Part shown: positions 49,627 to 64,000 of the stretch, in pieces | Layout: each line of letters starts with the position of its first letter | Position numbering within the stretch: position 1 is the first letter of the stretch | NCBI GenBank assembly: GCA_946184615.1 | Contig: CAMHFN010000008.1 | Span: forward strand, 23,148-87,147 | Reading direction: 5' to 3' | Length of the DNA: 64,000 nucleotides | Source: an uncultured Bacteroidales bacterium | Lineage (GTDB): Bacteria; Bacteroidota; Bacteroidia; Bacteroidales; F082 | Made by a program: the position numbers and the translations under genes | The notes under the pieces: generated by a model | What the model was told of the DNA's origin: nothing | What the model saw: only the letters and a program-made list of their open reading frames with translations | Databases searched by the model: none

Positions 49627-49871
49627 ACAATCCCAAAGGTTTTGTCAAAAAAGAGGATGTCGTCTTGACCCATCCCGACCTCTCCAAGCTATGGCTCGAC
49701 TCTGGCGATGTCCTTCGCTTGCTCCATTGCTCGATGCGCACCCTCTGCAAGCTCCGCGCCAAAGGCTTGCCTTATTACAAGGTTCACACCCATTATTGCC
49801 TCTACAAGCTCGATGAGATCATTGCCTTCATCGAAAACCAAAAGAGAAAGGAGGACGACGATGAGCAGTGA
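49623..49871 (+). CDS. Second small HTH protein
   Basis: LDSGDVLRLLHCSMRTLCKLRAKGLPYYKVHTHYCLYKLDEIIAFIE; ATGA overlap with upstream gene. Confidence 0.8.
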   Translation: MNNPKGFVKKEDVVLTHPDLSKLWLDSGDVLRLLHCSMRTLCKLRAKGLPYYKVHTHYCLYKLDEIIAFIENQKRKEDDDEQ

Positions 49872-50454
49872 TTTCCTCGATTTCTTGCCCCGTTTCTCTT
49901 ACTTCAGCAGACCAATCACCAACACCCAGCCATCCATGGAATACACCCTTCTGGATGCCTATCACTACATCATTGGAGGCGTTTCTGAGTTGGCCACCGA
50001 AACCTGCCGCTCGTTGCCTGAAGACCGCCGCAAAGTCTTCAAGAAGACCCATTTCGACTACTGCACTTTCTCAGGCATCTTCACAGGGCGCAACTCGGAA
50101 AACCTCGTTCGCCATTCCATGCTGTTCTGCTTCGACTTCGACCACCTTCAGGATGTCGAAGCCACCTTTGGCCAGCTCATCAACGACCGCTATTTTGAGA
50201 CCATGCTGCTCTTCCGTAGTCCTTCAGGCGATGGCCTCAAATGGGTCGTGTCGATGGAGCAAAACTACTTGCGCCGTGAGAAGTATTTCCCCGACGACAC
50301 ACCAGCCAAATATCACCCCATCTTCTTCGAGGCTGTCAAACAATACTTGTTTTCCACCTACCAGCTCGAAGCCGATGGCAAATGCAAAGATGTCGCCCGC
50401 GCCTGTTTCCTGCCATACGACCCGCAGGCCTATATCAATCCCAAACTGTCATGA
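49861..50454 (+). CDS. VirE N-terminal/BT4734-like domain protein
   Basis: GIFTGRNSENLVRHSMLFCFDFDHLQD...LLFRSPSGDGLKWVV. Confidence 0.85.
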   Translation: MSSDFLDFLPRFSYFSRPITNTQPSMEYTLLDAYHYIIGGVSELATETCRSLPEDRRKVFKKTHFDYCTFSGIFTGRNSENLVRHSMLFCFDFDHLQDVEATFGQLINDRYFETMLLFRSPSGDGLKWVVSMEQNYLRREKYFPDDTPAKYHPIFFEAVKQYLFSTYQLEADGKCKDVARACFLPYDPQAYINPKLS

Positions 50455-52268
50455 CCGCTCCGCTCAACATTTCCTCATCCTATTCCTCCGTCGAGGCCCT
50501 GACCGTCCTGATTGAACGGTCGGGCATCGATATCACCGCCGATTATGGCGACTGGTGCAGCATCGGCTTCGCCCTCGCTTACGAGTTCGGTGCCGATGGT
50601 GAGCACTTTTTCCACAGAATTTCGGCTTTTTACCCCAATTATGACTACAAAACAGCCTCAAAACAATACGCTTCTTGTGTCCGTCACAAGGTGCCGTCCG
50701 GCAAGGCTCCCATCACCATCGCCACCCTCTTCCATATCGCCAAATCCCACGGAATCAACTTGCCAGCACCATCTTCCGATGGTCTTGGCTCGTTGCTCCG
50801 TCCCGACCTCATTGCGGGCTGCGCCCCGCAATCTCACCCATTTTCCTCACGAAATCCGAATGAGGAAATGAGGAATGAGGAAAACCCCGGGCTTGCGGAC
50901 GGCTCGTCCGCACAACCCGTACCCCTTCCAACCTTCTCCCAGGCAGTCAAAAAAGACCTCCCCACCATCATGCAGCGCATCATCGCCGACTCGGTTTCGG
51001 ATGTCGATGCCGACATCCTCATCCTCGGCTCTCTGACAGTCTTTTCGGCTTGCATCCCGAATGTCTATGGCATGTATGACTGTCGCGAAGTCTTCGCCAA
51101 TCTCTTCCTCTTTGTCACGGCACGAGCATCGGCTGGCAAAGGACGGCTCTCCCTGTGCCGTCATCTCGCTGCGCCGTTGCATCAGGCGCTCCGCGACAAA
51201 TACCGCAAGCAGCTGAAGAAGTTTGAAGCTGCCCAAGTGGCCTATGCCATCAACCGCAAGAACTCTCTTGAAGTGCCACCAAAAGAACCGCCGTTCCTCA
51301 CGTTGTTCGTCCCTGCCAACAGCACGGCCACAGTCGTCTATCAGACCCTCGCCCAAAACAACGGTGTCGGCCTTCTGTTCGAGACAGAAGGCGACACCTT
51401 GGCCAACGCCTTCAATTCAGACCTCGGCAACTATTCTGACGGATTCAGGAAAGCGTTTCACCACGAAACGATTTCCTATCTCCGCAAGAAAGATCATGAA
51501 TACGTCGAGATTGTGAAGCCCAAATTCTCCGCTGTCCTGTCCGGCACACCGCAGCAAATCTTCAATCTCATTCCTGATGCAGAAAACGGCTTGTTCAGCC
51601 GTTTCATCTTCTATGTCATGGAAACCGAACTGGTCTGGCACAACATGTTTGCCTCCCATGGTGGTACCACCGCCGATGAGAAGTTCAAGGAAATTGGCCG
51701 CGACTTCTTCACCTTCCTGAAGAAGTTCCCCAAGCGGCCAGTCCAGTTCACTCTCAGCCTCTCCCAAATGGACCAGTTCAACGACTTCTTTGAAGCCACG
51801 CAGCTTCGCTTCGCTCAGCTGCTCGGCGACGAAATCGTGGCCACCGTTCGTCGCCTCGGCCTCATCCTCTTTCGCTTCGCGATGATCCTCAGCGTCCTTC
51901 GCCTCATCGATAAGGCACCAGGCAAAAGCCTGAAAGACATAAAGCGGCTGGTCTGCTCCGATGCCGACTTCGACACTGCCTTGGCCATGGTCAAAGTCCT
52001 GCTGCAGCACTCGGCAGCTGTCTTTCAGGCGCTGCCTCGCAACGCCAAGGCACCTGTCTTGAAAGGCCGTCAGGTAATCGCAGCCGAAACCCGCGAAAAG
52101 TTCCTGGCAGCATTGCCAGAAACTTTCGACCGCCCAACCTACCTCAATACCGCCGCTGCGCTCAACATCACCGAAAAAACCGCTGAGCGTTACCTGCAAT
52201 TCTTCATCAAGTCTGGCCAGTTGGCGCATCCCGCCAATGGCCAATACATCAAAACCAACGCACTATGA
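50451..52268 (+). CDS. PriCT-2 plus DUF3987 primase/helicase-like protein
   Basis: YGDWCSIGFALAYEFGADGEHFFHRISAFYPNYDYKTASKQY; DUF3987 FVTARASAGKGRLS, LLFETEGDTLANAF. Confidence 0.88.
   Translation: MTAPLNISSSYSSVEALTVLIERSGIDITADYGDWCSIGFALAYEFGADGEHFFHRISAFYPNYDYKTASKQYASCVRHKVPSGKAPITIATLFHIAKSHGINLPAPSSDGLGSLLRPDLIAGCAPQSHPFSSRNPNEEMRNEENPGLADGSSAQPVPLPTFSQAVKKDLPTIMQRIIADSVSDVDADILILGSLTVFSACIPNVYGMYDCREVFANLFLFVTARASAGKGRLSLCRHLAAPLHQALRDKYRKQLKKFEAAQVAYAINRKNSLEVPPKEPPFLTLFVPANSTATVVYQTLAQNNGVGLLFETEGDTLANAFNSDLGNYSDGFRKAFHHETISYLRKKDHEYVEIVKPKFSAVLSGTPQQIFNLIPDAENGLFSRFIFYVMETELVWHNMFASHGGTTADEKFKEIGRDFFTFLKKFPKRPVQFTLSLSQMDQFNDFFEATQLRFAQLLGDEIVATVRRLGLILFRFAMILSVLRLIDKAPGKSLKDIKRLVCSDADFDTALAMVKVLLQHSAAVFQALPRNAKAPVLKGRQVIAAETREKFLAALPETFDRPTYLNTAAALNITEKTAERYLQFFIKSGQLAHPANGQYIKTNAL
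50841..50884 (-). repeat. Inverted, coding copy of the TTCCTCA repeat
   Basis: TTTTCCTCACGAAATCCGAATGAGGAAATGAGGAATGAGGAAAA; related to 52882 and 53339 copies. Confidence 0.75.
50889..50918. repeat. Coding palindrome GGGcTTGCGGAC-GGCTC-GTCCGCAcAACCC
   Basis: Near-perfect inverted repeat inside the DUF3987 ORF linker. Confidence 0.8.
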
Positions 52269-52507
52269 ACTACACAATACAAATCGAAACCCACTCCATA
52301 AATGCCTATGCAGCCATCCATGCCATCATGGTAAAATCCAATGTCGTTAAACGCCTTTGGCGGTTTTTCTGCTATTCAGCCACCATCAGAACGCGCAAAG
52401 GGCCTCAAACATACGAGGCCATCAAAACCGCTTTACAAAAAGCCGGCATCCGCGAGTCAGCCTACAAACTGACCATCGACCCACCAATCCCAACCCCGAA
52501 GGGGTGA
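52265..52507 (+). CDS. Small ORF, paralog A (80 aa)
   Basis: MNYTIQIETHSINAYAAIHAIMVKSNVVKRLWRFFCYSATIRT... Confidence 0.6.
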   Translation: MNYTIQIETHSINAYAAIHAIMVKSNVVKRLWRFFCYSATIRTRKGPQTYEAIKTALQKAGIRESAYKLTIDPPIPTPKG

Positions 52508-52513
52508 CCCGTC

Positions 52514-52553
52514 TCTTCCCCCTCTGAGAGGGGGTGGCCGCAGGCCGGGGGAG
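52514..52553 (+). repeat. REP-like repeat, intergenic copy 1
   Basis: TTCCCCCTCTGAGAGGGGGTGGCCGCAGGCCGGGGGAGTC. Confidence 0.85.
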
Positions 52554-52589
52554 TCAACTCCTAACTTCTAACTTCAAACTTCTAACTAT

Positions 52590-52838
52590 ATGAAAGCAAT
52601 CATCCACATCGAAACCTACACCAAAGCCGCCTACCGTGCCATCCGTCCCGCCGTGGTGGCCACAAACCTCGGCTTCTTTGGCGTGTGTGGCCTCACCATT
52701 TCGGCCACCATCAAACAGTCCGATTACGCCTACCTCGTCGATGTCGTCAACCACGCCGCACAAAGCGCAGGTGTCCACCGCACAGAGTACGCCATCATCA
52801 ACCTGCAAAACATCCTAAAACCAAAAGGAAATGATTGA
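52590..52838 (+). CDS. Small ORF, paralog B (82 aa)
   Basis: MKAIIHIETYTKAAYRAIRPAVVATNLGFFGVCGLTISATIKQ... parallels paralog A. Confidence 0.6.
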   Translation: MKAIIHIETYTKAAYRAIRPAVVATNLGFFGVCGLTISATIKQSDYAYLVDVVNHAAQSAGVHRTEYAIINLQNILKPKGND

Positions 52839-52926: not shown

Positions 52927-53286
52927 TCAGCTATTATCTGCCTCCAAATCCTCCAAATCAATCTGACACTGTGCTTCGCCATCCCTGACAACCCAGCAAA
53001 CAGAAACAACCCTGCCTAAAGTATCAAAACACAATCCCTTCCATAATTGCTCCTTCGTTGGCTTGGGCTGCGTCTTTTGTTTTTCAGGATTTAAATACCA
53101 TTCGGCCAGCTCGCTTGGCAGATACTCCCAATAGTCAAACAGGTCGTCATTCTCTATGATAGCTTTCTTGACAGGATCCCAATCTGCCGTCACAATGTCC
53201 CCAATTCTTGGAGCGCATGGGAACTCTGCTTCAAGATGGTAACGGAAAGAACAGCATTGGTTCCTAATGAACATCTTTACTTTCAT
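52927..53286 (-). CDS. Hypothetical protein
   Basis: MKVKMFIRNQCCSFRYHLEAEFPCAPRIGDIVTADW... Confidence 0.6.
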   Translation of the reverse strand: MKVKMFIRNQCCSFRYHLEAEFPCAPRIGDIVTADWDPVKKAIIENDDLFDYWEYLPSELAEWYLNPEKQKTQPKPTKEQLWKGLCFDTLGRVVSVCWVVRDGEAQCQIDLEDLEADNS

Positions 53287-53338
53287 ATCGCTGATTTTTC
53301 GACAAAAATACAACAATTTCGGAATCCTCAAATTCCTC

Positions 53339-53383
53339 TTTTCCTCATTTCCTCATTCCTCACTCACTTTTTTCGTGAGGAAT
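53339..53383 (+). repeat. TTCCTCA repeat copy B
   Basis: 44 of 45 positions match copy A. Confidence 0.9.
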
Positions 53384-53603
53384 TTCCCTGCAAACGGTCT
53401 ATTTCAGCCATTATGTCGGCAGCTTCCTGATGAAGCCTTACAACCTCTTTCAGCGCGTCGGCTTGACTTTGCAGGTCATCTTCATCCACATCATTGAGGC
53501 TATCCAAAAGCGATTGTGCAGCCTTCAATTTTGCCTTGATGTCAGCGTACTTTTGTTTGATTTCCTCCCGTGTCATGGAATAGGGTTTTGCGGCTTCCAG
53601 CAT
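53364..53603 (-). CDS. Small coiled-coil protein
   Basis: MTREEIKQKYADIKAKLKAAQSLLDSLNDVDEDDLQSQADALKEVVRLHQEAADIMAEIDRLQG; last residues come from repeat copy B. Confidence 0.55.
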   Translation of the reverse strand: MLEAAKPYSMTREEIKQKYADIKAKLKAAQSLLDSLNDVDEDDLQSQADALKEVVRLHQEAADIMAEIDRLQGNSSRKK

Positions 53604-53632
53604 AAAAGAAGGCGCAGCCTTCTCGTTCTATA

Positions 53633-53744
53633 GTACTAAGGCTCTGGCAAGCCCTCACAATACAGAAGCGAAGAAGTCTACGCCTATGGCGCAGACTTCA
53701 CAGCTCTGCTTCCTTTGTGAGTGAATTTTGCCAGATTCTAGTAC
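53633..53744. other. 112-nt nested imperfect hairpin
   Basis: Arms GTACTA/TAGTAC, TCTGGCAA/TTGCCAGA, CTCACAA/TTGTGAG, GAAGC/GCTTC, GAAGTCT/AGACTTC, CGCC-tat-GGCG, all collinear and nested. Confidence 0.9.
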
Positions 53745-53877
53745 AGGAAAACAAAGCGTAAAGCCTATTTTTCTATGTCTTTTCGATTAAAAAACGCCGC
53801 AAATTTACAACTTTTTTCAAACTATCGTAAGCACGATAGCACGTTAGTACAAATAACGAATTCTGTCCGATTCTTCT

Positions 53878-55620: not shown

Positions 55621-56253
55621 ATGAAAAATACCAGTCCTTACAGCGCGGCAATAACAGGATGCGGCTTCATGATCAACGAAATGACAGCCGTTCTGCCTCT
55701 CCTCATGAGCGACGATGCCGATGCGCTGTTGAAAGATGAAATCATAAATAACAACCTTCTTAAAATCAATACAGAGACCACTCGTCGCCGTGCCGTCGCC
55801 GAGTTCGTCCGTCGCTATAAAGCTATGCCTGTCTCGTTCTGGAACGACTATTTGGCCATGTCCGAGGATGAGCAGCGCATCGCCATGTTTTTCGTAATAC
55901 TCAAAACCTACCGCATTTGTTTCGATTTCCAAATCAACGTGGTGCTGAAGAACTGGCGTTCCGTCTCACAAACTGTCTCAAGGGCTGATTTGTTGATGTG
56001 CATTGACGACATCGCCGCTCAGGATGCCTTTGTGGATAGCTGGTCTGAAAAGACCTATGTCAAAATCGCTGCAGCTTATATGGGCATCCTTCGTCATGCT
56101 GGCTTCGTCGAACGTGATGGCCACCAAATCAAGCGCGTCACCCTTCCGGCATCCAGCTGGCAATACTACCTTCGCATTGGTGAAGCCTGGTTCCTCGATG
56201 CTTGCCTGCTGCCACCCTATGAAATCGAATCCATTAAAAACGCTGCCCTATGA
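55621..56253 (+). CDS. brxA: BREX protein BrxA (DUF1819)
   Basis: DUF1819-like sequence; first gene of a brxA-brxB-brxC-pglX order. Confidence 0.88.
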   Translation: MKNTSPYSAAITGCGFMINEMTAVLPLLMSDDADALLKDEIINNNLLKINTETTRRRAVAEFVRRYKAMPVSFWNDYLAMSEDEQRIAMFFVILKTYRICFDFQINVVLKNWRSVSQTVSRADLLMCIDDIAAQDAFVDSWSEKTYVKIAAAYMGILRHAGFVERDGHQIKRVTLPASSWQYYLRIGEAWFLDACLLPPYEIESIKNAAL

Positions 56254-56852
56254 CACCAATGACCATCCCACAGCTTTGCGAAAAGCTCACTTCCGAGCCT
56301 TTCCAAAACCCGCGCAATATCGTCTACTACAACTATTATATTTTCCTTTATGACCCTGCCAAGGAATACGAAATCCGTCAGCAGATTCACGACATGAAGG
56401 ACAGCCTCAAACGGCCTGCCAACTTCATCGATATTCCAGCCCTCAATCTCTTCGATGAGTTCTGCCGTTTCCTCGATAAGCAACCCTTTGGCAAGTTCGA
56501 CAGCTCCTATCTTCATTATATGCTGGAGAACGAAACGCCAGAATACTCTCGCATCCTCACCATCAAGGCAGGAAGTAAGGAGTTTATGAGCTATATCCAG
56601 CAACGCATCAACGAGGAAATCGACAAAGCGGATGAATACATTCATCCTTATGTCTTCATTTATGGTATCGGCTCCATGTACCCTTATCTCCGTGCCAATG
56701 ACTTCCTCACCAAATACGAGGGCTACAACGACCCCAGCCGCTACAAAATCATCCTGTTCTATCCAGGCTCCATCGATGGCAATTCTTACAGCCTCTTCAA
56801 TCGGCTGCATGACCAGCACGGCTATCGCTCCATCAACCTAATCAACAAGTGA
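56250..56852 (+). CDS. brxB: BREX protein BrxB (DUF1788)
   Basis: YDPAKEYEIRQQI...IYGIGSMYPYLRANDFLTKYE...ILFYPGSIDGNSYSLF; ATGA overlap with brxA. Confidence 0.92.
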   Translation: MTPMTIPQLCEKLTSEPFQNPRNIVYYNYYIFLYDPAKEYEIRQQIHDMKDSLKRPANFIDIPALNLFDEFCRFLDKQPFGKFDSSYLHYMLENETPEYSRILTIKAGSKEFMSYIQQRINEEIDKADEYIHPYVFIYGIGSMYPYLRANDFLTKYEGYNDPSRYKIILFYPGSIDGNSYSLFNRLHDQHGYRSINLINK

Positions 56853-56874
56853 AATACAAAAACAACGTCGAGAT

Positions 56875-59800
56875 ATGAAACTTCAACAAATCTACAAGAA
56901 AGACATTACCCGTAATGTGAACCCTGCCGTTTATATGGAGGACATCAACCCTGAAACGGCTCGTGTCGAAATCAAGGAATATGTGTTCACCGACGACATC
57001 ATCAAGCAGATGTATGAAGTCCTTTCTGCCATCAAGGAGAAGAAATACAGTCAGGATGGCATTTGGGTGTCCGGCTATTTCGGCTCGGGTAAGTCTCACT
57101 TCCTGAAATATATCAGCTATTGCCTGCATAAGGACTACCAAAACGAAGCCTTGCAACGCCTCGAAGAGGAAACCGTCGCTCGCGACCCTCTGGAGCATCC
57201 CGAAAGCACCATCGGCATTGAGCCGTCTGAAATCCGCGACCTCTGCAACTGGTTCAAGGCCGCTGAGGTCGAGACGCTGCGCTTCAACCTGGGCAAACGC
57301 GCCAACGAAGACGAGGACGAGCACCAAAAGGCCAAGTCCTTTGTGTCGCTCTTCTGGAACGCCTTCAATGGCCATCTTGGTTACAACCACTACAACATCC
57401 ACATGGCCATGCTCCTCGAACGCCTCCTTGATAAGCGCGGAGTCTATGAGCAATTCAAGGAGAAAATCGCCGAAAAGACGGGCATGGATTGGCTCGAAGA
57501 GTCCGAAACCATCATCATCGCCTTGCCAAGCTTCATCGCCGAAACCGTCAAGGAACTGGCTCCCGATTTGAATGTGGATGACATCCTAGCCAACATCAAG
57601 GCCAATGGCCTCACCATTTCGGTCGATACCTTCGCCACCATGCTGAAAAACCACCTCGCCACCAAGTCCGACAACTACCGTTTGCTTTTCATAGCCGACG
57701 AGGTTTCCATGTTCATCGCCAACAATCAGCAGTTGCTCCTTCAGCTGCAGAGCATCGTGGAGGAAATGCACACCGCTTGTGGCGATAAGATTTGGGTCGC
57801 TTGCTCCGCTCAGCAGGAACTCACCGAAATCCTCGACAACTGCCAAATCAATAAGCAGAATCCCAACTATGGCCAAATCACTGGCCGTTTCCCCGTCAAA
57901 GTCTCTCTGAAGAGTACCAAGCTTGAATATATCACCCAGCAGCGCATCCTCGAAAAGGAAGCCAACGCTCAGGCCGAATTGGGCAGACTCTACGACGAAA
58001 AGCAGCTGGCCATCACCGAGCAGTTCAATTCACTGCCCAAGGGCTACAGCAAGTTTGCAGACCGTCAAAACTTCATTGACTTCTATCCCTTCGTGCCTTA
58101 TCAGTTTGCCTTGGTCACCAAGGTCTTCGATGCCTTCCAAAACAAGGAATTTATCGAAGTCGAAGTCAAGGGCAACCAGCGTTCCGTGCTTCGTGTCACT
58201 CATGCCACGGCACAGAACACGAAAGACCAGCCTGTGGGCAGCTTCATCTCCTTCGACCAGTTCTATAAGCCGATGTTCGCACAGCTCACCAACAAAGGCA
58301 CCAACGCCATCTCCAATGCCGAGAGCGTCATCCAAACCTATTCCGATACGGAGTTTGGCCTTCGCGTGGTGCGTGTTCTGTTTATGATCTGCAACCTCAA
58401 CGAGTCCGACAGGGCTGTGTTCGGTGCCACCGCTGCCAATGTCGTCACCCTGCTCATGCAGAATGTCGACACCCAGAAGCAAGTCCTCGTCGATAAGGTC
58501 AACGATGTCCTGAGCTATCTGGTCGACAATAATGTGCTTCAAGAAATCACTTCGCCCACCAAGGCCACCATCTATCAGTTCTACACCGACGATGAGCGTG
58601 AAGTCGTCACGGCCATCAAGCACCAGCAAATCGACAACAACTTTATGGCCACCATGCTCGAAGGCATCTTCCGTAAGTATTCAGGCATCAATCCGCGTGA
58701 AAACTATATGACGGGTAGCTTTAATATCGCGGCCAACATCATGAATAAGAATTTCTGGACCAACACCAACGCGCCTGTGTCCGTCGAGTTTGTCCTTGAA
58801 AACAACTATCCTGATATGGCCAGCTTTATGTTCAACAATCCCAATAACAAACTCGTTTTCTTCTTGGCCGACCTTTACGCCGCCAACAAGAATCTGAAGA
58901 ACGAGTTCTATTGGTATTGCCAGGTGTCGAAATACCTCAGCGAAAACATGGCCAACTCAACCGAACGCGAAGCCACCAACAACCTCTTCCGCAACAAGTC
59001 CAACAACACCTTCCAGCAAACCATCCTTCCCATGTTCCACAAGATGTTCGACGATTGTCCTGTCATCAGTGGCCAACACGAAGTGATGATGGGTGCTGAT
59101 AAAGGCGATAAGCGTTACAAGTTCGCTATCCAAAACCATTTCAGCAACATCTTTACCTACGCTTCTCTGGTCAACAGTCCTTCTGTGCCTCGCGATTCCA
59201 AGGCGCTCTATGCTCGCATCATCGCGCCTAAGAAAACCAACGAGTACGAAATGATGCCGCTGTCACCAGCCGAAGAGGAAGTCAGCCGTTACCTCGACAA
59301 GCAAGGTGCCAACCCTGTTTCCATCAAGGATGTCGTCGAAAAATTCGCCGCCATCCCTTACGGCTGGAACGAAATCTGCACCATCTTCATCATGAATGAG
59401 CTGGTGCGCCGCAATCTCCGTTCTTTCTCTTATAAGAACACCCCCAATGCCGAGCGCGTCCTTGTGGCCGACAAAATCATGTCAAACAAGGCCGATTTCA
59501 CCATCTGCCCGGCTCAAACCATCCCCGCCGAGCTGGTCAACAGCTTCACCAAGGCATGGAAGTCGGTGTTCAATGATATGAATATCGATAACATGTCCGA
59601 CCCCGAAGAGCTGAAGCAATACGCTCAGGGCTTTATCAATAATATCCTTGATGCCATCGATAACTTCTACAAGGAAAAGAACATTGGCACCAGCCCGTTC
59701 GCCAAGCACATCGATGCGGCTCAAAACTTGTTGAAGCCTTGGCACATGGAGCGCGACACTGCCACTTTCTTCAATGCGGTCATCAGCCAAGAAGAGGAAG

Positions 59801-60402
59801 CCAAGCAGATCCTCGACAACTATAAGACCGTTTCGGCCTTCATCAACCGTGCCGACCGCTTCGATATCTATAAGGCTTTTGTCCGTTTCGTTCACGACAA
59901 TGAAGAGAACTGGCAGTACATCCCTGAAGAGCAAGAAACCGTGAACAACCTCCGCGCCATCCTCACGGATGATAACCCGATGCGCAATCTGGCCACATAT
60001 AAGGCTCTGAAGGAACGCTTGGAGCAAGCCTTGAACAAAGTCAAGGAAGACCTCCGTGAGCGCATCCGAGTGGCCTACACCCAAGAGGACGAACGCTTAA
60101 GCAGTATCGCCTCTGAGCAAGGCGTAACCTACCACAGCCGCGTCGATGTCCGCATCCAACAGAAAACCCAATCCAACAATATCGCTGTCTTGCAGAACAA
60201 CATCAATACCGACGAGTTCTTCCAAGAAGAATCCGCAAAGCTGTTGTCTGCTAAGACAGGCAAGACTCCGCCCACCGTCAAAATCCAAACACGCTCCAAG
60301 TCCACCTTGAAGACCGTCGAGGATGTCGACAAATACTTGGCTGGACTACGCAAACAAATCATGCCCTACATCGACAAAGGCGATGAAATCATAATCCTCT
60401 AA
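56875..60402 (+). CDS. brxC: BREX P-loop protein BrxC
   Basis: GIWVSGYFGSGKSHFLKYISY; 1175 aa; operon context. Confidence 0.94.
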   Translation: MKLQQIYKKDITRNVNPAVYMEDINPETARVEIKEYVFTDDIIKQMYEVLSAIKEKKYSQDGIWVSGYFGSGKSHFLKYISYCLHKDYQNEALQRLEEETVARDPLEHPESTIGIEPSEIRDLCNWFKAAEVETLRFNLGKRANEDEDEHQKAKSFVSLFWNAFNGHLGYNHYNIHMAMLLERLLDKRGVYEQFKEKIAEKTGMDWLEESETIIIALPSFIAETVKELAPDLNVDDILANIKANGLTISVDTFATMLKNHLATKSDNYRLLFIADEVSMFIANNQQLLLQLQSIVEEMHTACGDKIWVACSAQQELTEILDNCQINKQNPNYGQITGRFPVKVSLKSTKLEYITQQRILEKEANAQAELGRLYDEKQLAITEQFNSLPKGYSKFADRQNFIDFYPFVPYQFALVTKVFDAFQNKEFIEVEVKGNQRSVLRVTHATAQNTKDQPVGSFISFDQFYKPMFAQLTNKGTNAISNAESVIQTYSDTEFGLRVVRVLFMICNLNESDRAVFGATAANVVTLLMQNVDTQKQVLVDKVNDVLSYLVDNNVLQEITSPTKATIYQFYTDDEREVVTAIKHQQIDNNFMATMLEGIFRKYSGINPRENYMTGSFNIAANIMNKNFWTNTNAPVSVEFVLENNYPDMASFMFNNPNNKLVFFLADLYAANKNLKNEFYWYCQVSKYLSENMANSTEREATNNLFRNKSNNTFQQTILPMFHKMFDDCPVISGQHEVMMGADKGDKRYKFAIQNHFSNIFTYASLVNSPSVPRDSKALYARIIAPKKTNEYEMMPLSPAEEEVSRYLDKQGANPVSIKDVVEKFAAIPYGWNEICTIFIMNELVRRNLRSFSYKNTPNAERVLVADKIMSNKADFTICPAQTIPAELVNSFTKAWKSVFNDMNIDNMSDPEELKQYAQGFINNILDAIDNFYKEKNIGTSPFAKHIDAAQNLLKPWHMERDTATFFNAVISQEEEAKQILDNYKTVSAFINRADRFDIYKAFVRFVHDNEENWQYIPEEQETVNNLRAILTDDNPMRNLATYKALKERLEQALNKVKEDLRERIRVAYTQEDERLSSIASEQGVTYHSRVDVRIQQKTQSNNIAVLQNNINTDEFFQEESAKLLSAKTGKTPPTVKIQTRSKSTLKTVEDVDKYLAGLRKQIMPYIDKGDEIIIL

Positions 60403-60561
60403 AGCCCCGTAGGGGCGACCCAACCCTAACCAGGGGTTTCAACCCCTGGCACTTCCCCCTCTATGAGGGGGTGGCCGCAGGCCGGGGGAGTCAGCCTCGA
60501 AAGCACGTAAGCACGTAAGCACGATAACTGAACAACTGAACAACTGATAACTACCCACTGA
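60403..60561 (+). repeat. Composite repeat spacer between brxC and pglX
   Basis: GCCCC-gta-GGGGC; CCAGGGG-tttcaa-CCCCTGG; REP TTCCCCCTCTATGAGGGGGTGGCCGCAGGCCGGGGGAGTC; AAGCACGTAAGCACGTAAGCACG; AACTGAACAACTGAACAACTG. Confidence 0.85.
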
Positions 60562-63500
60562 ATGAACACCAACCAAATACAACGCTTCGCCACCCAAGCC
60601 CGTAACATCCTCCTCGCGGGTGTCAATGCAAAACTCAATCTCCTTGGATTCAATGCTGATGGATCCGACAATAATGTCACCCCACCAAGCCGCTATTCCG
60701 ATAGCACCGTCTTCCAAGGCCGTGTCATTCCTGGCACTCGTTTCTACGAACAATGGATGGAACTATATAACCGCATCAAACTTATAGGTTTTGATGATGT
60801 CTGCGAGGAAGCCGCCTACACCTGGTTCAACCGTCTTGTGGCCTTGCGCATCCTCCAAAAGAACGGCATCATTCAGCCCGTCATCGAATACGACAACCCT
60901 GCTGTCAAGGTGCCTCGCATTGTCAATGATGCACGTCGCGGCAAATACGATTTTCTTATGCCCACCGACCGCCAGCAGCTTAATGAAGTCATTGATGACG
61001 ACACTCGTCTATTCGAGCAGTTCCAAGTCCTTATCACAGCCTATTGCCACAACCATCCCATCTTGAAGGCTTGTTTCGGTGGCATCACTGGGTACACTGA
61101 ATTGCTCTTGCCAAACAACATCCTCGTCGATGGAAACTTCATCGACCTGCTCAACAACACCGACTATCTCACTGACGACGACTACCGTCAGTCAGAATTG
61201 ATTGGCTGGCTCTATCAGTTCTATATCTCGGAGAAGAAAGACGAAGTCTTCGCTTCCTTCAAAGACGGCAACAAAGCTGAAGCCGACCAAATCCCAGCGG
61301 CCACTCAAATCTTCACGCCCAACTGGATTGTGAAATACATGGTGCAAAACACCGCTGGCCGCATCTACCTCGACAACCATCCCAACAGCCCCATAAAAGA
61401 CTCATGGAAATACCTCGTCGAGGCCCCTGAGCCTGTCGAAGGGTCCCCCTCTGAGAGGGGGCAAGGGGGAGTCTTACAACTCTCTTCTCTCGAAGATCTA
61501 ACCTGCGCCGACCTCTCCTGTGGCTCTGGCCACATCCTCGGCGAGTTCTTCGACCTGCTCTTTCAAATCTACGATGAAGAGCTGTACGACCCTCGCGATG
61601 CCGTTGAGAAAATCCTTACCCATAACATCCTTGGCATCGACCTCGACACCCGTGCCAAGCAGCTCTCCATGTTCGCTTTGCTCCTGAAAGCCTGTCAGAA
61701 GGACATCAGTTTCGCCGATGCCCACTGTCTGCCTCGTGTGCTCGACATGCCCAAGCCTTTGTTGTACCGCGCTCCTGATGTCGCCATTGGTGCTGAAGCC
61801 AATATGACAAACTATGAGGGCTATGGCTTTGCAAAGACACTTATTGACAAATTTTTCTCCGGCACGGCCTCCGAAGAAACCACACAACAGGTTTTGCAAG
61901 CCTTAGCACTGATGGGCGAAGCCTACAACCTCGGCTCCATTATGCGTTTCAACATTACACCCGAAGTCCGATATTCAATCACTCAGGCTGTACAATACTG
62001 GAATACCAAAGACGAACTTCCTGTTGAGGTTCAGAACATCATGCCATCCATCCAGCTCCTTCTTGCATTGACAGACAAATATGCCGCTGTGGTGATGAAT
62101 CCTCCTTATATGGGTAATGGAAATATGAATCCGGAGCTTTCAAAATACGTAAAAGATAACTACGAAAAGGGCAAGGCCGACCTCTGCACAGTTTTTATGC
62201 TATTGCAAGCCGAGCGTACCCTAGAAGGTGGTTGTTATGCTAACATTGTTCCTCCATCATGGCTATTCCTTTCAACTATTGAGCAGTTACGCCGACAGAT
62301 TATTGATAACCAATGCATCCTGTCTATGCTTCATCTCAGCCGTGGTATTTTTGGTGCTGATTTTGGAAGCGTTTGCACAGTTATTCAGAATCGAATGGAC
62401 GAAAATGCTAAAGGTACCTATTTCCGTCTAATTGAAAGAACATTTCAAGAGTTTGATCAAAAGCATTTAAAACTGCTATTTGAAAAAACATTAGCCGACC
62501 ATGATTTCCGCTTCTATTTTGCAGACTATTCAAAGGAAGTATCAGATATTGTTTATTCTAAACATGGCACAAAGACATACTATCCTAATGTTTTGCAATC
62601 CAACTTTAAGAAAATTCCTGGCTGTCCTGTTAGTTATTGGCTGAGTGACAAAATTGTTGAGGCTTATTCAATGTCCCCTTCAAAAACAGTCATTGAATTA
62701 AAAACTGGAATAACTACAGGTGACAATGTTAAATACACAAGACTCTGGATGGAAGTCGATAAAACAAGGATACCTTCTATCTGGTGTTTTATGAGAAGTG
62801 GAGGAACTAAACGTTTATGGTATGGTTGCTTGTTAGATGTTGTATACTGGAAAAACGAAGGAGAAGAAATCAAATCATTGACAACCTCAACAATGAGAAA
62901 TCCTGAATATATGTATAGACCAGCAATAACATGGTCTAAAATATCATCAGGTAATGTCTCAGTTCGCTATTCTCCTCAACGAGTATTATTTGATGCTGTA
63001 GGATTAAGTGGATTTGCTGACAATAATACTTTGTTGTACTCAATGGCTTTGTTCAATAGTAAAGTTGGTAACTATTTCATAAGGATTACAAATTCAAGCA
63101 TGAGTATCTTAACTTCTGACTTGGGTAAAATTCCATATATCAATAAAAACCAACAAGAAATCTGTGAATTGGTGTCTAATAACATCGCCATCAGCAAAGC
63201 AGATTGGGACGCTCATGAAACCTCATGGGATTTCCAAGAGAATGAACTGATAAGATTGCAAAAACAAGGAAAAGGAACCTTTAGAATCGGTTTTGAAAAT
63301 GCTCCCAAAAACAACTATGTTACACTGGATTTATTGGTTGAAGAATATAAGGCCTATTGGATGGATAAATTCAACCAGCTCCACCATAACGAAGAGGAGC
63401 TTAACCGTCAGTTTATCGAAATCTACGGCCTTCAGGACGAGCTTTCACCCGATGTGCCTTTGGAGGAAGTCACTATCCTTCAGCAAGGCGAGTTGATGTT

Positions 63501-64000
63501 TATTCCCGCTCCTGGTTCCGAAAATTGTAAGACTCCAATTTGGTGCGAAGACAACATCATCCAGCAGCTCATCAGCTACGCCATTGGCTGCTACATGGGT
63601 CGCTACCGCTTAGACCGTCCTGGCCTCCATATCGCCCACCCCAATCCAACCGCCGAAGAGCTGGCTCCTTATCAGGTCGCTGAGCCTGTCGAAGGGTCCC
63701 CCTCAGAGAGGGGGTGGCAGCAGGCCGGGGGAGTCTTCCAAATCGACTCCGATGCCATCATCCCCATCCTTCCCATCGATGCGCCTTTCCCGGACAATGC
63801 CGTCAACCGAATCACAGATTTTGTGAAACTCGTCTTTGGCATCGACAACATCAACGGGAATATGAATTTCATTCAGGATGCCTTGGGAATGTCCGTGGCC
63901 GACTATATGACCAAGAGTTTCTACACCGACCACAAGAAGCGTTACCAGAACCGCCCCATCTATTGGCTTTTCTCGTCAAAGAAAGGCGCGTTCCAGTGCC
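60562..64000 (+). CDS. pglX: BREX-1 adenine-specific methyltransferase PglX, 3' end outside the window
   Basis: Frame read manually (absent from the ORF track because it has no stop in the window): DLSCGSGHIL motif I, VVMNPPYMGNG NPPY motif. Confidence 0.93.
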   Translation, partial: MNTNQIQRFATQARNILLAGVNAKLNLLGFNADGSDNNVTPPSRYSDSTVFQGRVIPGTRFYEQWMELYNRIKLIGFDDVCEEAAYTWFNRLVALRILQKNGIIQPVIEYDNPAVKVPRIVNDARRGKYDFLMPTDRQQLNEVIDDDTRLFEQFQVLITAYCHNHPILKACFGGITGYTELLLPNNILVDGNFIDLLNNTDYLTDDDYRQSELIGWLYQFYISEKKDEVFASFKDGNKAEADQIPAATQIFTPNWIVKYMVQNTAGRIYLDNHPNSPIKDSWKYLVEAPEPVEGSPSERGQGGVLQLSSLEDLTCADLSCGSGHILGEFFDLLFQIYDEELYDPRDAVEKILTHNILGIDLDTRAKQLSMFALLLKACQKDISFADAHCLPRVLDMPKPLLYRAPDVAIGAEANMTNYEGYGFAKTLIDKFFSGTASEETTQQVLQALALMGEAYNLGSIMRFNITPEVRYSITQAVQYWNTKDELPVEVQNIMPSIQLLLALTDKYAAVVMNPPYMGNGNMNPELSKYVKDNYEKGKADLCTVFMLLQAERTLEGGCYANIVPPSWLFLSTIEQLRRQIIDNQCILSMLHLSRGIFGADFGSVCTVIQNRMDENAKGTYFRLIERTFQEFDQKHLKLLFEKTLADHDFRFYFADYSKEVSDIVYSKHGTKTYYPNVLQSNFKKIPGCPVSYWLSDKIVEAYSMSPSKTVIELKTGITTGDNVKYTRLWMEVDKTRIPSIWCFMRSGGTKRLWYGCLLDVVYWKNEGEEIKSLTTSTMRNPEYMYRPAITWSKISSGNVSVRYSPQRVLFDAVGLSGFADNNTLLYSMALFNSKVGNYFIRITNSSMSILTSDLGKIPYINKNQQEICELVSNNIAISKADWDAHETSWDFQENELIRLQKQGKGTFRIGFENAPKNNYVTLDLLVEEYKAYWMDKFNQLHHNEEELNRQFIEIYGLQDELSPDVPLEEVTILQQGELMFIPAPGSENCKTPIWCEDNIIQQLISYAIGCYMGRYRLDRPGLHIAHPNPTAEELAPYQVAEPVEGSPSERGWQQAGGVFQIDSDAIIPILPIDAPFPDNAVNRITDFVKLVFGIDNINGNMNFIQDALGMSVADYMTKSFYTDHKKRYQNRPIYWLFSSKKGAFQC
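61422..61473 (+). repeat. REP-like repeat in-frame in pglX, copy 1
   Basis: CCTGAGCCTGTCGAAGGGTCCCCCTCTGAGAGGGGGCAAGGGGGAGTC encodes PEPVEGSPSERGQGGV. Confidence 0.9.
63680..63735 (+). repeat. REP-like repeat in-frame in pglX, copy 2
   Basis: GCTGAGCCTGTCGAAGGGTCCCCCTCAGAGAGGGGGTGGCAGCAGGCCGGGGGAGTC encodes AEPVEGSPSERGWQQAGGV. Confidence 0.9.

What the first reader, a model, noticed from the sequence alone, without database searches (positions are those of the whole stretch)
53633..53744. 112-nt nested imperfect hairpin with six collinear stems
GTACTA/TAGTAC, TCTGGCAA/TTGCCAGA, CTCACAA/TTGTGAG, GAAGC/GCTTC, GAAGTCT/AGACTTC and CGCC-tat-GGCG nest in order with small bulges, about 37 bp paired in total. 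It lies in a non-coding gap between the small-ORF cluster and the DUF4143 gene, and no protein explains it. Candidates are a structured ncRNA, a folded single-stranded DNA site (oriT or single-strand origin for the mobile element), or a MITE.
Basis: seen in the sequence. Interest (0 to 1): 0.75.

Follow-up and report, generated by a model that had tools for sequence, protein, structure and literature searches.

The report
Uncatalogued two-shape leader RNA family
The hairpin is one copy of a large RNA family, apparently not yet catalogued, that sits just before small DNA-binding-protein, cell-surface and restriction genes throughout the Bacteroidota and can fold in two mutually exclusive ways, so it probably works as an on/off switch for the gene behind it.

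Summary
The hairpin is real and far from chance (z = -7.9 on the minus strand). It is the middle of a ~162-nt RNA on the MINUS strand (53766 to 53605), with a Bacteroidota-type -7 promoter box upstream and a U-run abutting the ATG of a 79-aa ORF. Homologs show extensive compensatory change. A covariance model finds the RNA in 109/295 Bacteroidales genomes (75 genera), 96/100 genomes of the genus (up to 18 copies) and 27/298 sampled genomes across the phylum. No Rfam 15 family matches. The sense strand folds better than its complement in 39/39 diverged representatives. Besides the hairpin (strand 2:3), the pairings 1:2 and 3:4 coevolve strongly (z -10 and -12); control pairings do not; 3:4 ends directly at the U-run. 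This is attenuator-like geometry. Downstream genes: small HTH proteins (51/95), surface proteins, SusC/RagA receptors (outside Bacteroidales), restriction-modification genes and, here, a coiled-coil ORF. Best explanation: a cis-acting leader RNA that switches between a rod and a two-hairpin terminator form; signal unknown. Structure, strand and family are well supported; the switching mechanism is inferred. oriT/ssDNA-origin readings are not supported; MITE-like spread is partly true.

The parts
53605..53766 (-). the structured RNA (5' end at 53766); contains the reported hairpin 53633-53744
   Evidence: R1 cmsearch match 114 bits, E 2.6e-21, model 1-174 (the window is in the training set); fold -72.2 kcal/mol, z -6.6
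53800..53807 (-). TAAATTTG, match to the Bacteroidota -7 promoter consensus TAnnTTTG, 41 nt upstream of the RNA body; start site inferred
   Evidence: 53/95 homologs have TAnnTTTG within 90 nt upstream against 3.1 expected; consensus from PMC7366714
53743..53766 (-). strand 1: small 5' hairpin AGGC-UUUAC-GCUU plus UGUUUUCCUGU, complementary to strand 2
53737..53744 (-). outer stem, 5' side (GUACUAGA)
53727..53736 (-). core stem, 5' side (AUCUGGCAAA), the most conserved stretch
53688..53727 (-). strand 2: apical 5' arm of the hairpin
53685..53687 (-). apical loop
53651..53684 (-). strand 3: apical 3' arm; pairs with strand 2 (rod) or strand 4 (alternative)
53642..53652 (-). core stem, 3' side (GCUUGCCAGAG)
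53633..53640 (-). outer stem, 3' side (CUUAGUAC)
53605..53634 (-). strand 4 ending in CUGCGCC-UUCUUU(U): terminator-like 3' segment immediately before the next start codon
53364..53603 (-). 79-aa coiled-coil-like ORF starting directly after the U-run; presumed controlled gene
   Evidence: near-identical in L002/L030; similar-sized coiled-coil ORF at the same place in tRNA-linked relatives
52927..53331 (-). 134-aa ORF downstream of the 79-aa ORF; a homolog follows the RNA directly in L034

Best explanation
It is a structured 5' leader RNA of a family that no database used here contains, transcribed on the minus strand from its own Bacteroidota-type promoter into the small ORF behind it. SHOWN by comparison: the long rod (strand 2:strand 3 plus core and outer stems) and a second set of pairings (1:2 and 3:4) are both maintained by coevolution, and strand 4 ends in a U-run next to the start of the next gene. 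INFERRED: strand 1 can pair with strand 2 as soon as strand 2 is made; when strand 3 emerges it either captures strand 2 (rod, keeping strand 3 away from strand 4) or goes on to pair with strand 4, forming a GC-rich stem followed by U's that stops transcription and/or hides the translation start. Which shape wins sets expression of the downstream gene. The input (an HTH protein, another RNA, polymerase speed, or chance) is unknown.
For: Compensatory change in the rod (17/27 pairs). Own-versus-permuted partners in 39 representatives below 70% identity: 2:3 z -16.7, 3:4 z -12.4, 1:2 z -10.4, controls 1:3 and 2:4 nothing. The 1:2+3:4 structure counted on an alignment made without it: 81.3% paired against 74.3% shuffled and 42-50% slid; 20 against 12.4 pairs changed on both sides, 0/500 shuffles. 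Sense strand better than antisense 39/39, and in the alternative helices 36/39 each. Promoter box 53/95 against 3.1 expected. U-run in 94/95 and ATG at its end in 41/95. Seven members outside Bacteroidales not used to build the model: own partner usually better for 3:4 and 1:2, not for 1:4. Fixed polarity to HTH, coiled-coil or SusC genes. Truncated-transcript folding: 1:2 forms in 38/39 when strand 2 has just been made.
Against: No transcript data. At equilibrium the rod is usually 10-15 kcal/mol better than two separate hairpins, so switching needs kinetics or a factor. Strand 4 resembles strand 2, so part of the 3:4 signal and its strand bias could be inherited from 2:3. Relatedness inflates permutation tests. 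Downstream genes are diverse, so no single signal is suggested. The U-run is part of the search model, which favours finding it.
Confidence: 0.6

Rival explanations
1. A stand-alone small RNA with its own promoter and terminator that acts in trans; the ORF behind it is incidental or expressed by read-through. A C4- or P4-CI-like variant: strand 3 of one molecule pairs with strand 4 of another nascent transcript.
For: Own promoter box and U-run; similarity between loci often stops at the RNA's own ends while downstream genes differ; strand 3 is complementary to two places in the same transcript.
Against: Start codon of the next gene abuts the U-run in 41/95; the downstream gene is a small HTH protein in 51/95 and a SusC/RagA receptor in 6/7 copies outside Bacteroidales, too consistent for a free sRNA.
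Confidence: 0.2
2. A miniature mobile repeat (MITE-like) whose palindromic ends or whole body are recognised as DNA; the RNA features are by-products.
For: Up to 18 copies per genome; copies with unrelated flanks and ends near the RNA boundaries; hits near contig ends in fragmented genomes; a 94-95% identical 720-840 bp stretch with RNA + HTH gene at unrelated loci in three species.
Against: Copies mostly 65-85% identical, not recent; strand-biased G-U tolerance 39/39; coevolving alternative pairings; conserved upstream promoter box and polarity to the gene behind. No terminal repeat or target-site duplication was demonstrated.
Confidence: 0.1
3. A cluster of DNA operator sites for the linked HTH protein; the repeated, inverted strands 1-4 are binding half-sites that change together with the protein.
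For: 51/95 copies precede an HTH gene and several non-Bacteroidales copies have a divergent HTH gene; strands 1-4 are direct and inverted repeats of one another.
Against: G-U bias in all helices; single-copy core and outer stems also covary; copies without an HTH gene keep the structure (window, restriction and surface genes).
Confidence: 0.06
4. oriT or single-strand origin of the mobile island, folded as ssDNA.
For: In the closest relatives it sits beside a PriCT_2/DUF3987 primase gene, near the tRNA-side end of elements; also folds as ssDNA (-34.1 kcal/mol, z -4.9).
Against: No PF03432 relaxase in the MAG. Most family members lie beside HTH, surface or restriction genes, not replication genes. 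Promoter box and U-run point to transcription.
Confidence: 0.03

Closest known systems
trp-type transcription attenuators (general knowledge; terminator/antiterminator principle also in PMC3369936, abstract)
   Same: Four strands with 1:2 + 3:4 versus 2:3, and 3:4 followed by U's just before the controlled gene.
   Different: No leader peptide was identified; the 2:3 arm is a ~30-bp rod; downstream genes are HTH, surface and restriction genes rather than biosynthesis operons; the core stem lies between the strands, so that in the alternative form it could only persist as a loop-loop (kissing) contact.
C4 antisense RNA of P1/P7 and CI RNA of satellite P4 (from memory; C4 = Rfam RF01695)
   Same: An RNA with internal complementarity to a second site in its own transcription unit, next to a start codon, on mobile elements.
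   Different: No Rfam C4 match; ~160-190 nt rod; phylum Bacteroidota; trans action untested.
Structured leaders and sRNAs reported in Bacteroidota (64 structured 5' regions and Rfp sRNAs of Flavobacterium psychrophilum, PMC9723704; B. thetaiotaomicron map, PMC7366714)
   Same: Structured RNAs with the TAnnTTTG promoter in the same phylum.
   Different: No family of this architecture is described in the passages read; whether single members are listed in their tables was not tested (supplements not available).
ERIC/RUP-type intergenic palindromes (MITE-like)
   Same: ~130-170 nt imperfect palindromes dispersed between genes.
   Different: Here one-strand G-U tolerance, coevolving alternative pairings, fixed polarity to the downstream start codon and phylum-wide divergence.

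Membership tests
Any Rfam 15 family | score above the curated gathering cut-off | tested here: not met
   No match over the RNA in the window or in 20 loci of several classes; E-value scans of three members gave only weak, unrelated hits
Transcription attenuator (intrinsic terminator type) | mutually exclusive, conserved pairings | tested here: met
   2:3 versus 1:2 + 3:4
Transcription attenuator (intrinsic terminator type) | GC-rich stem followed by a U-run upstream of the controlled gene | tested here: met
   strand 4 + U-run in 94/95; motif is part of the search model
Transcription attenuator (intrinsic terminator type) | termination at the U-run controlled by a signal | not testable with these tools
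   needs transcription experiments
C4 antisense RNA (P1/P7) | match to RF01695 | tested here: not met
MITE | dispersed copies with unrelated flanks | tested here: met
MITE | terminal inverted repeats with target-site duplications and precise empty sites | not tested
   boundaries of one recent set were inspected only
oriT of a mobilisable element | cognate relaxase in the element or host | tested here: not met
   PF03432 absent from the own MAG; 79% complete, other relaxase families not searched

The most novel reading that the evidence does not exclude
A phylum-wide, uncatalogued RNA family acts as a bistable folding switch: kinetic competition between the rod (2:3) and two-hairpin (1:2 + 3:4) forms makes individual cells express or silence surface receptors, lipoproteins, restriction systems and small HTH regulators at random. 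Bacteroidota would then have a co-transcriptional, RNA-based form of phase variation that needs no DNA inversion.
Probability: 0.15. Interest if true: 0.92.

Novelty: new variant of a known kind. Interest (0 to 1): 0.75.

Why it matters
If the leader reading is right, more than a third of sampled Bacteroidales genomes carry, often many times over, a regulatory RNA that current annotation misses, in front of genes that face phages and hosts: SusC/RagA receptors, lipoproteins, restriction-modification genes and small HTH regulators. The covariance model and the explicit strand definitions make a hidden layer of control in a major gut and environmental phylum directly testable.

Tried and rejected
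oriT/ssDNA origin: no relaxase. Known RNA family: six Rfam searches, nothing over the RNA. Phage or plasmid origin: window RNA against phages, the L136 copy against plasmids, an exact-pattern scan of viral contigs and the HTH protein in viral contigs were all empty, but only fairly close similarity is covered. Attachment site: in tRNA-linked relatives the RNA is ~330 nt from the tRNA end and no integrase was recognised beside it; most family members have no such setting. Retron and bridge-RNA ideas (long hairpin, mobile setting) were dropped without a dedicated search; no reverse transcriptase or IS110 recombinase was noticed nearby. A 1:4 closing stem has only weak support (z -2.8) and none in the held-out set. 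A local hairpin within strand 4 is variable. The first CM consensus (R1) contains a spurious 3-bp helix and omits most of 2:3; it was good enough for searching. Literature: seven searches found no description; the 2017 list of 224 candidate RNAs was not held, so absence from the literature is provisional.

Full report
CHECK. The six nested arms are present at the stated coordinates. The stretch folds far better than 200 dinucleotide shuffles on either strand, and best on the minus strand (-59.1 kcal/mol, z -7.9; plus strand -52.0, z -6.6). It lies between a 79-aa minus-strand ORF (53364-53603) and a DUF4143 ATPase gene. A 181-base DNA search found one copy in the own MAG and 11 other genomes of the genus with matches of 69-100% identity.

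FIRST RELATIVES. In most of these the hairpin keeps its place, on the convergent side of a PriCT_2/DUF3987 primase gene of a mobile island. Stem arms change together (CUGGCAA/UUGCCAG with CUGGUAA/UUACCAG). In one set of relatives the island end is the 3' end of a tRNA-Glu, -Lys or -Arg gene about 330 nt beyond the hairpin; reading inward comes a TTTG...TACTTTTG promoter-like sequence, the hairpin and then a small coiled-coil ORF. That set the likely sense strand: minus in the window.

A MUCH LARGER FAMILY. A sense-strand pattern found 29 stretches in Bacteroidales MAGs, mostly from rumen, and none in viral contigs. Many of them lie upstream of a small HTH gene instead. Searching with that HTH protein in 295 Bacteroidales genomes and looking upstream gave strongly diverged copies in other families. 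An alignment of 26 members (A3) has 17 of 27 consensus pairs with compensatory changes. A covariance model (R1) finds 109 of 295 Bacteroidales genomes in 75 of 184 genera, 96 of 100 genomes of the genus with up to 18 copies and, at E <= 1e-5, 27 of 298 other genomes sampled across the phylum. Rfam 15 has no match over the RNA in the window or in 20 loci of different classes.

WHICH STRAND, RNA OR DNA. In 28 of 28 early members and 39 of 39 representatives below 70% identity the sense strand folds better than its complement, because changes pass through G-U pairs on that strand. A double-stranded DNA palindrome would show no such preference; a folded single DNA strand could show a weaker one. 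Upstream, the Bacteroidota -7 box TAnnTTTG (consensus in PMC7366714) occurs within 90 nt in 53 of 95 members against 3.1 expected; in the window it is TAAATTTG at 53807-53800. A U-run ends the RNA in 94 of 95 (this motif is part of the model). Orientation was taken from the model match, but for HTH-, coiled-coil- and SusC-linked members the downstream gene independently agrees.

TWO SHAPES. Call the segments 1 (5' end), 2 and 3 (apical arms) and 4 (3' end before the U-run). Strand 4 resembles strand 2 and can replace it as partner of strand 3; strand 1 can pair with strand 2. In the 39 representatives the real partner beats permuted partners for 2:3 (z -16.7), 3:4 (z -12.4) and 1:2 (z -10.4), while the control combinations 1:3 and 2:4 show nothing and 1:4 little (z -2.8). 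Counting the 1:2 + 3:4 structure on A3, an alignment made without it, gives 81.3% of cells paired against 74.3% in shuffles and 42-50% when slid, and 20 against 12.4 pairs with both sides changed; none of 500 shuffles reaches either value. Seven members from other orders, not used to build the model, mostly show the same preference. Folding of truncated transcripts predicts 1:2 in 38 of 39 when strand 2 has just been made, then 2:3. At equilibrium the rod usually wins by about 10-15 kcal/mol, although in L108 the two-hairpin form is the minimum-energy fold. Relatedness can inflate such tests, and part of the 3:4 signal follows from strand 4 resembling strand 2; the flat control pairings and the held-out set argue that this is not the whole story.

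WHAT IS DOWNSTREAM. Of 95 members, 51 are followed by a small (roughly 65-105 aa) HTH protein, 9 by the coiled-coil ORF, 31 by other genes and 4 by no clear ORF (classes assigned by a simple sequence rule). The other genes include restriction-modification components (EcoRI-type methylase, N6 methylases, HsdR_N, ResIII) and BspA-, WG-, T9SS- and C10-type surface or secreted proteins. A crude signal-peptide rule is met by 30 of 49 genes that follow the HTH gene and 19 of 31 first genes, against 14 of 135 upstream genes (upstream genes are often truncated, so the contrast is exaggerated). Outside Bacteroidales, 6 of 7 inspected copies precede SusC/RagA-type TonB-dependent receptors, at least three with an HTH gene on the other side. 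In three species a 94-95% identical stretch running from just upstream of the RNA through the HTH gene into a lipoprotein signal peptide ends in different mature proteins, suggesting that the leader travels as an expression cassette.

MECHANISM. The geometry is that of an attenuator: 1:2 lets 3 pair with 4, which ends in a U-run at the next gene's start; 2:3 prevents it. Termination at the U-run, or hiding of the start region, is inferred. The signal is not known. A trans-acting, terminated sRNA cannot be excluded without transcript data. oriT and DNA-operator readings fit poorly; a mobile-repeat origin is compatible with, but does not replace, an RNA function. In the window the presumed target is the 79-aa ORF, perhaps with the 134-aa ORF behind it; their function is unknown, and the nearby BREX genes are transcribed away from the RNA.

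NOVELTY. I know of no description, and seven searches of the open-access library found none, but that library lacks many papers, including the 2017 list of 224 candidate RNAs. The kind (a switching leader RNA) is known; the family, its phylum-wide spread and its gene set appear new.

Noticed in passing
window 55621-63999: brxA, brxB, brxC and a PglX-like methylase of a BREX defence system follow the DUF4143 gene; in the close relative L030 the same leader/primase module is followed by a different BREX version (BrxA 68%, BrxB 47% identical).
   Followed up: partly
window 49708-50454 and 50382-52268: A BT4734-like_N (PrimPol-like) frame overlaps the start of the PriCT_2/DUF3987 gene, suggesting a split primase-helicase; the split recurs in relatives.
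   Followed up: no
L031-L045: Roughly 4.5-7 kb relatives of the primase module sit 3' of tRNA-Glu/Lys/Arg genes with GTGTCAACC repeats next to the tRNA, but no integrase was recognised; they may use an integrase in trans.
   Followed up: partly
L176, L177, L178: A 94-95% identical promoter-RNA-HTH-lipoprotein-signal-peptide stretch is joined to different mature lipoprotein sequences in three species, as if the 5' cassette were exchanged.
   Followed up: partly
L196, L197, L143, L148, L208: Family members directly upstream of restriction-modification genes; in their genomes other copies with similar tips precede small HTH genes, which resemble controller proteins in size.
   Followed up: partly
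G189 and G347 copies (L152, L155, L228-L243): Many 70-85% identical copies per genome, several close to contig ends, pointing to a dispersed repeat that disturbs assembly.
   Followed up: partly
window 52265-52838: Two adjacent small ORFs (80 and 82 aa) are paralogs (30% identity), and the 82-aa one is conserved behind the primase in relatives.
   Followed up: no
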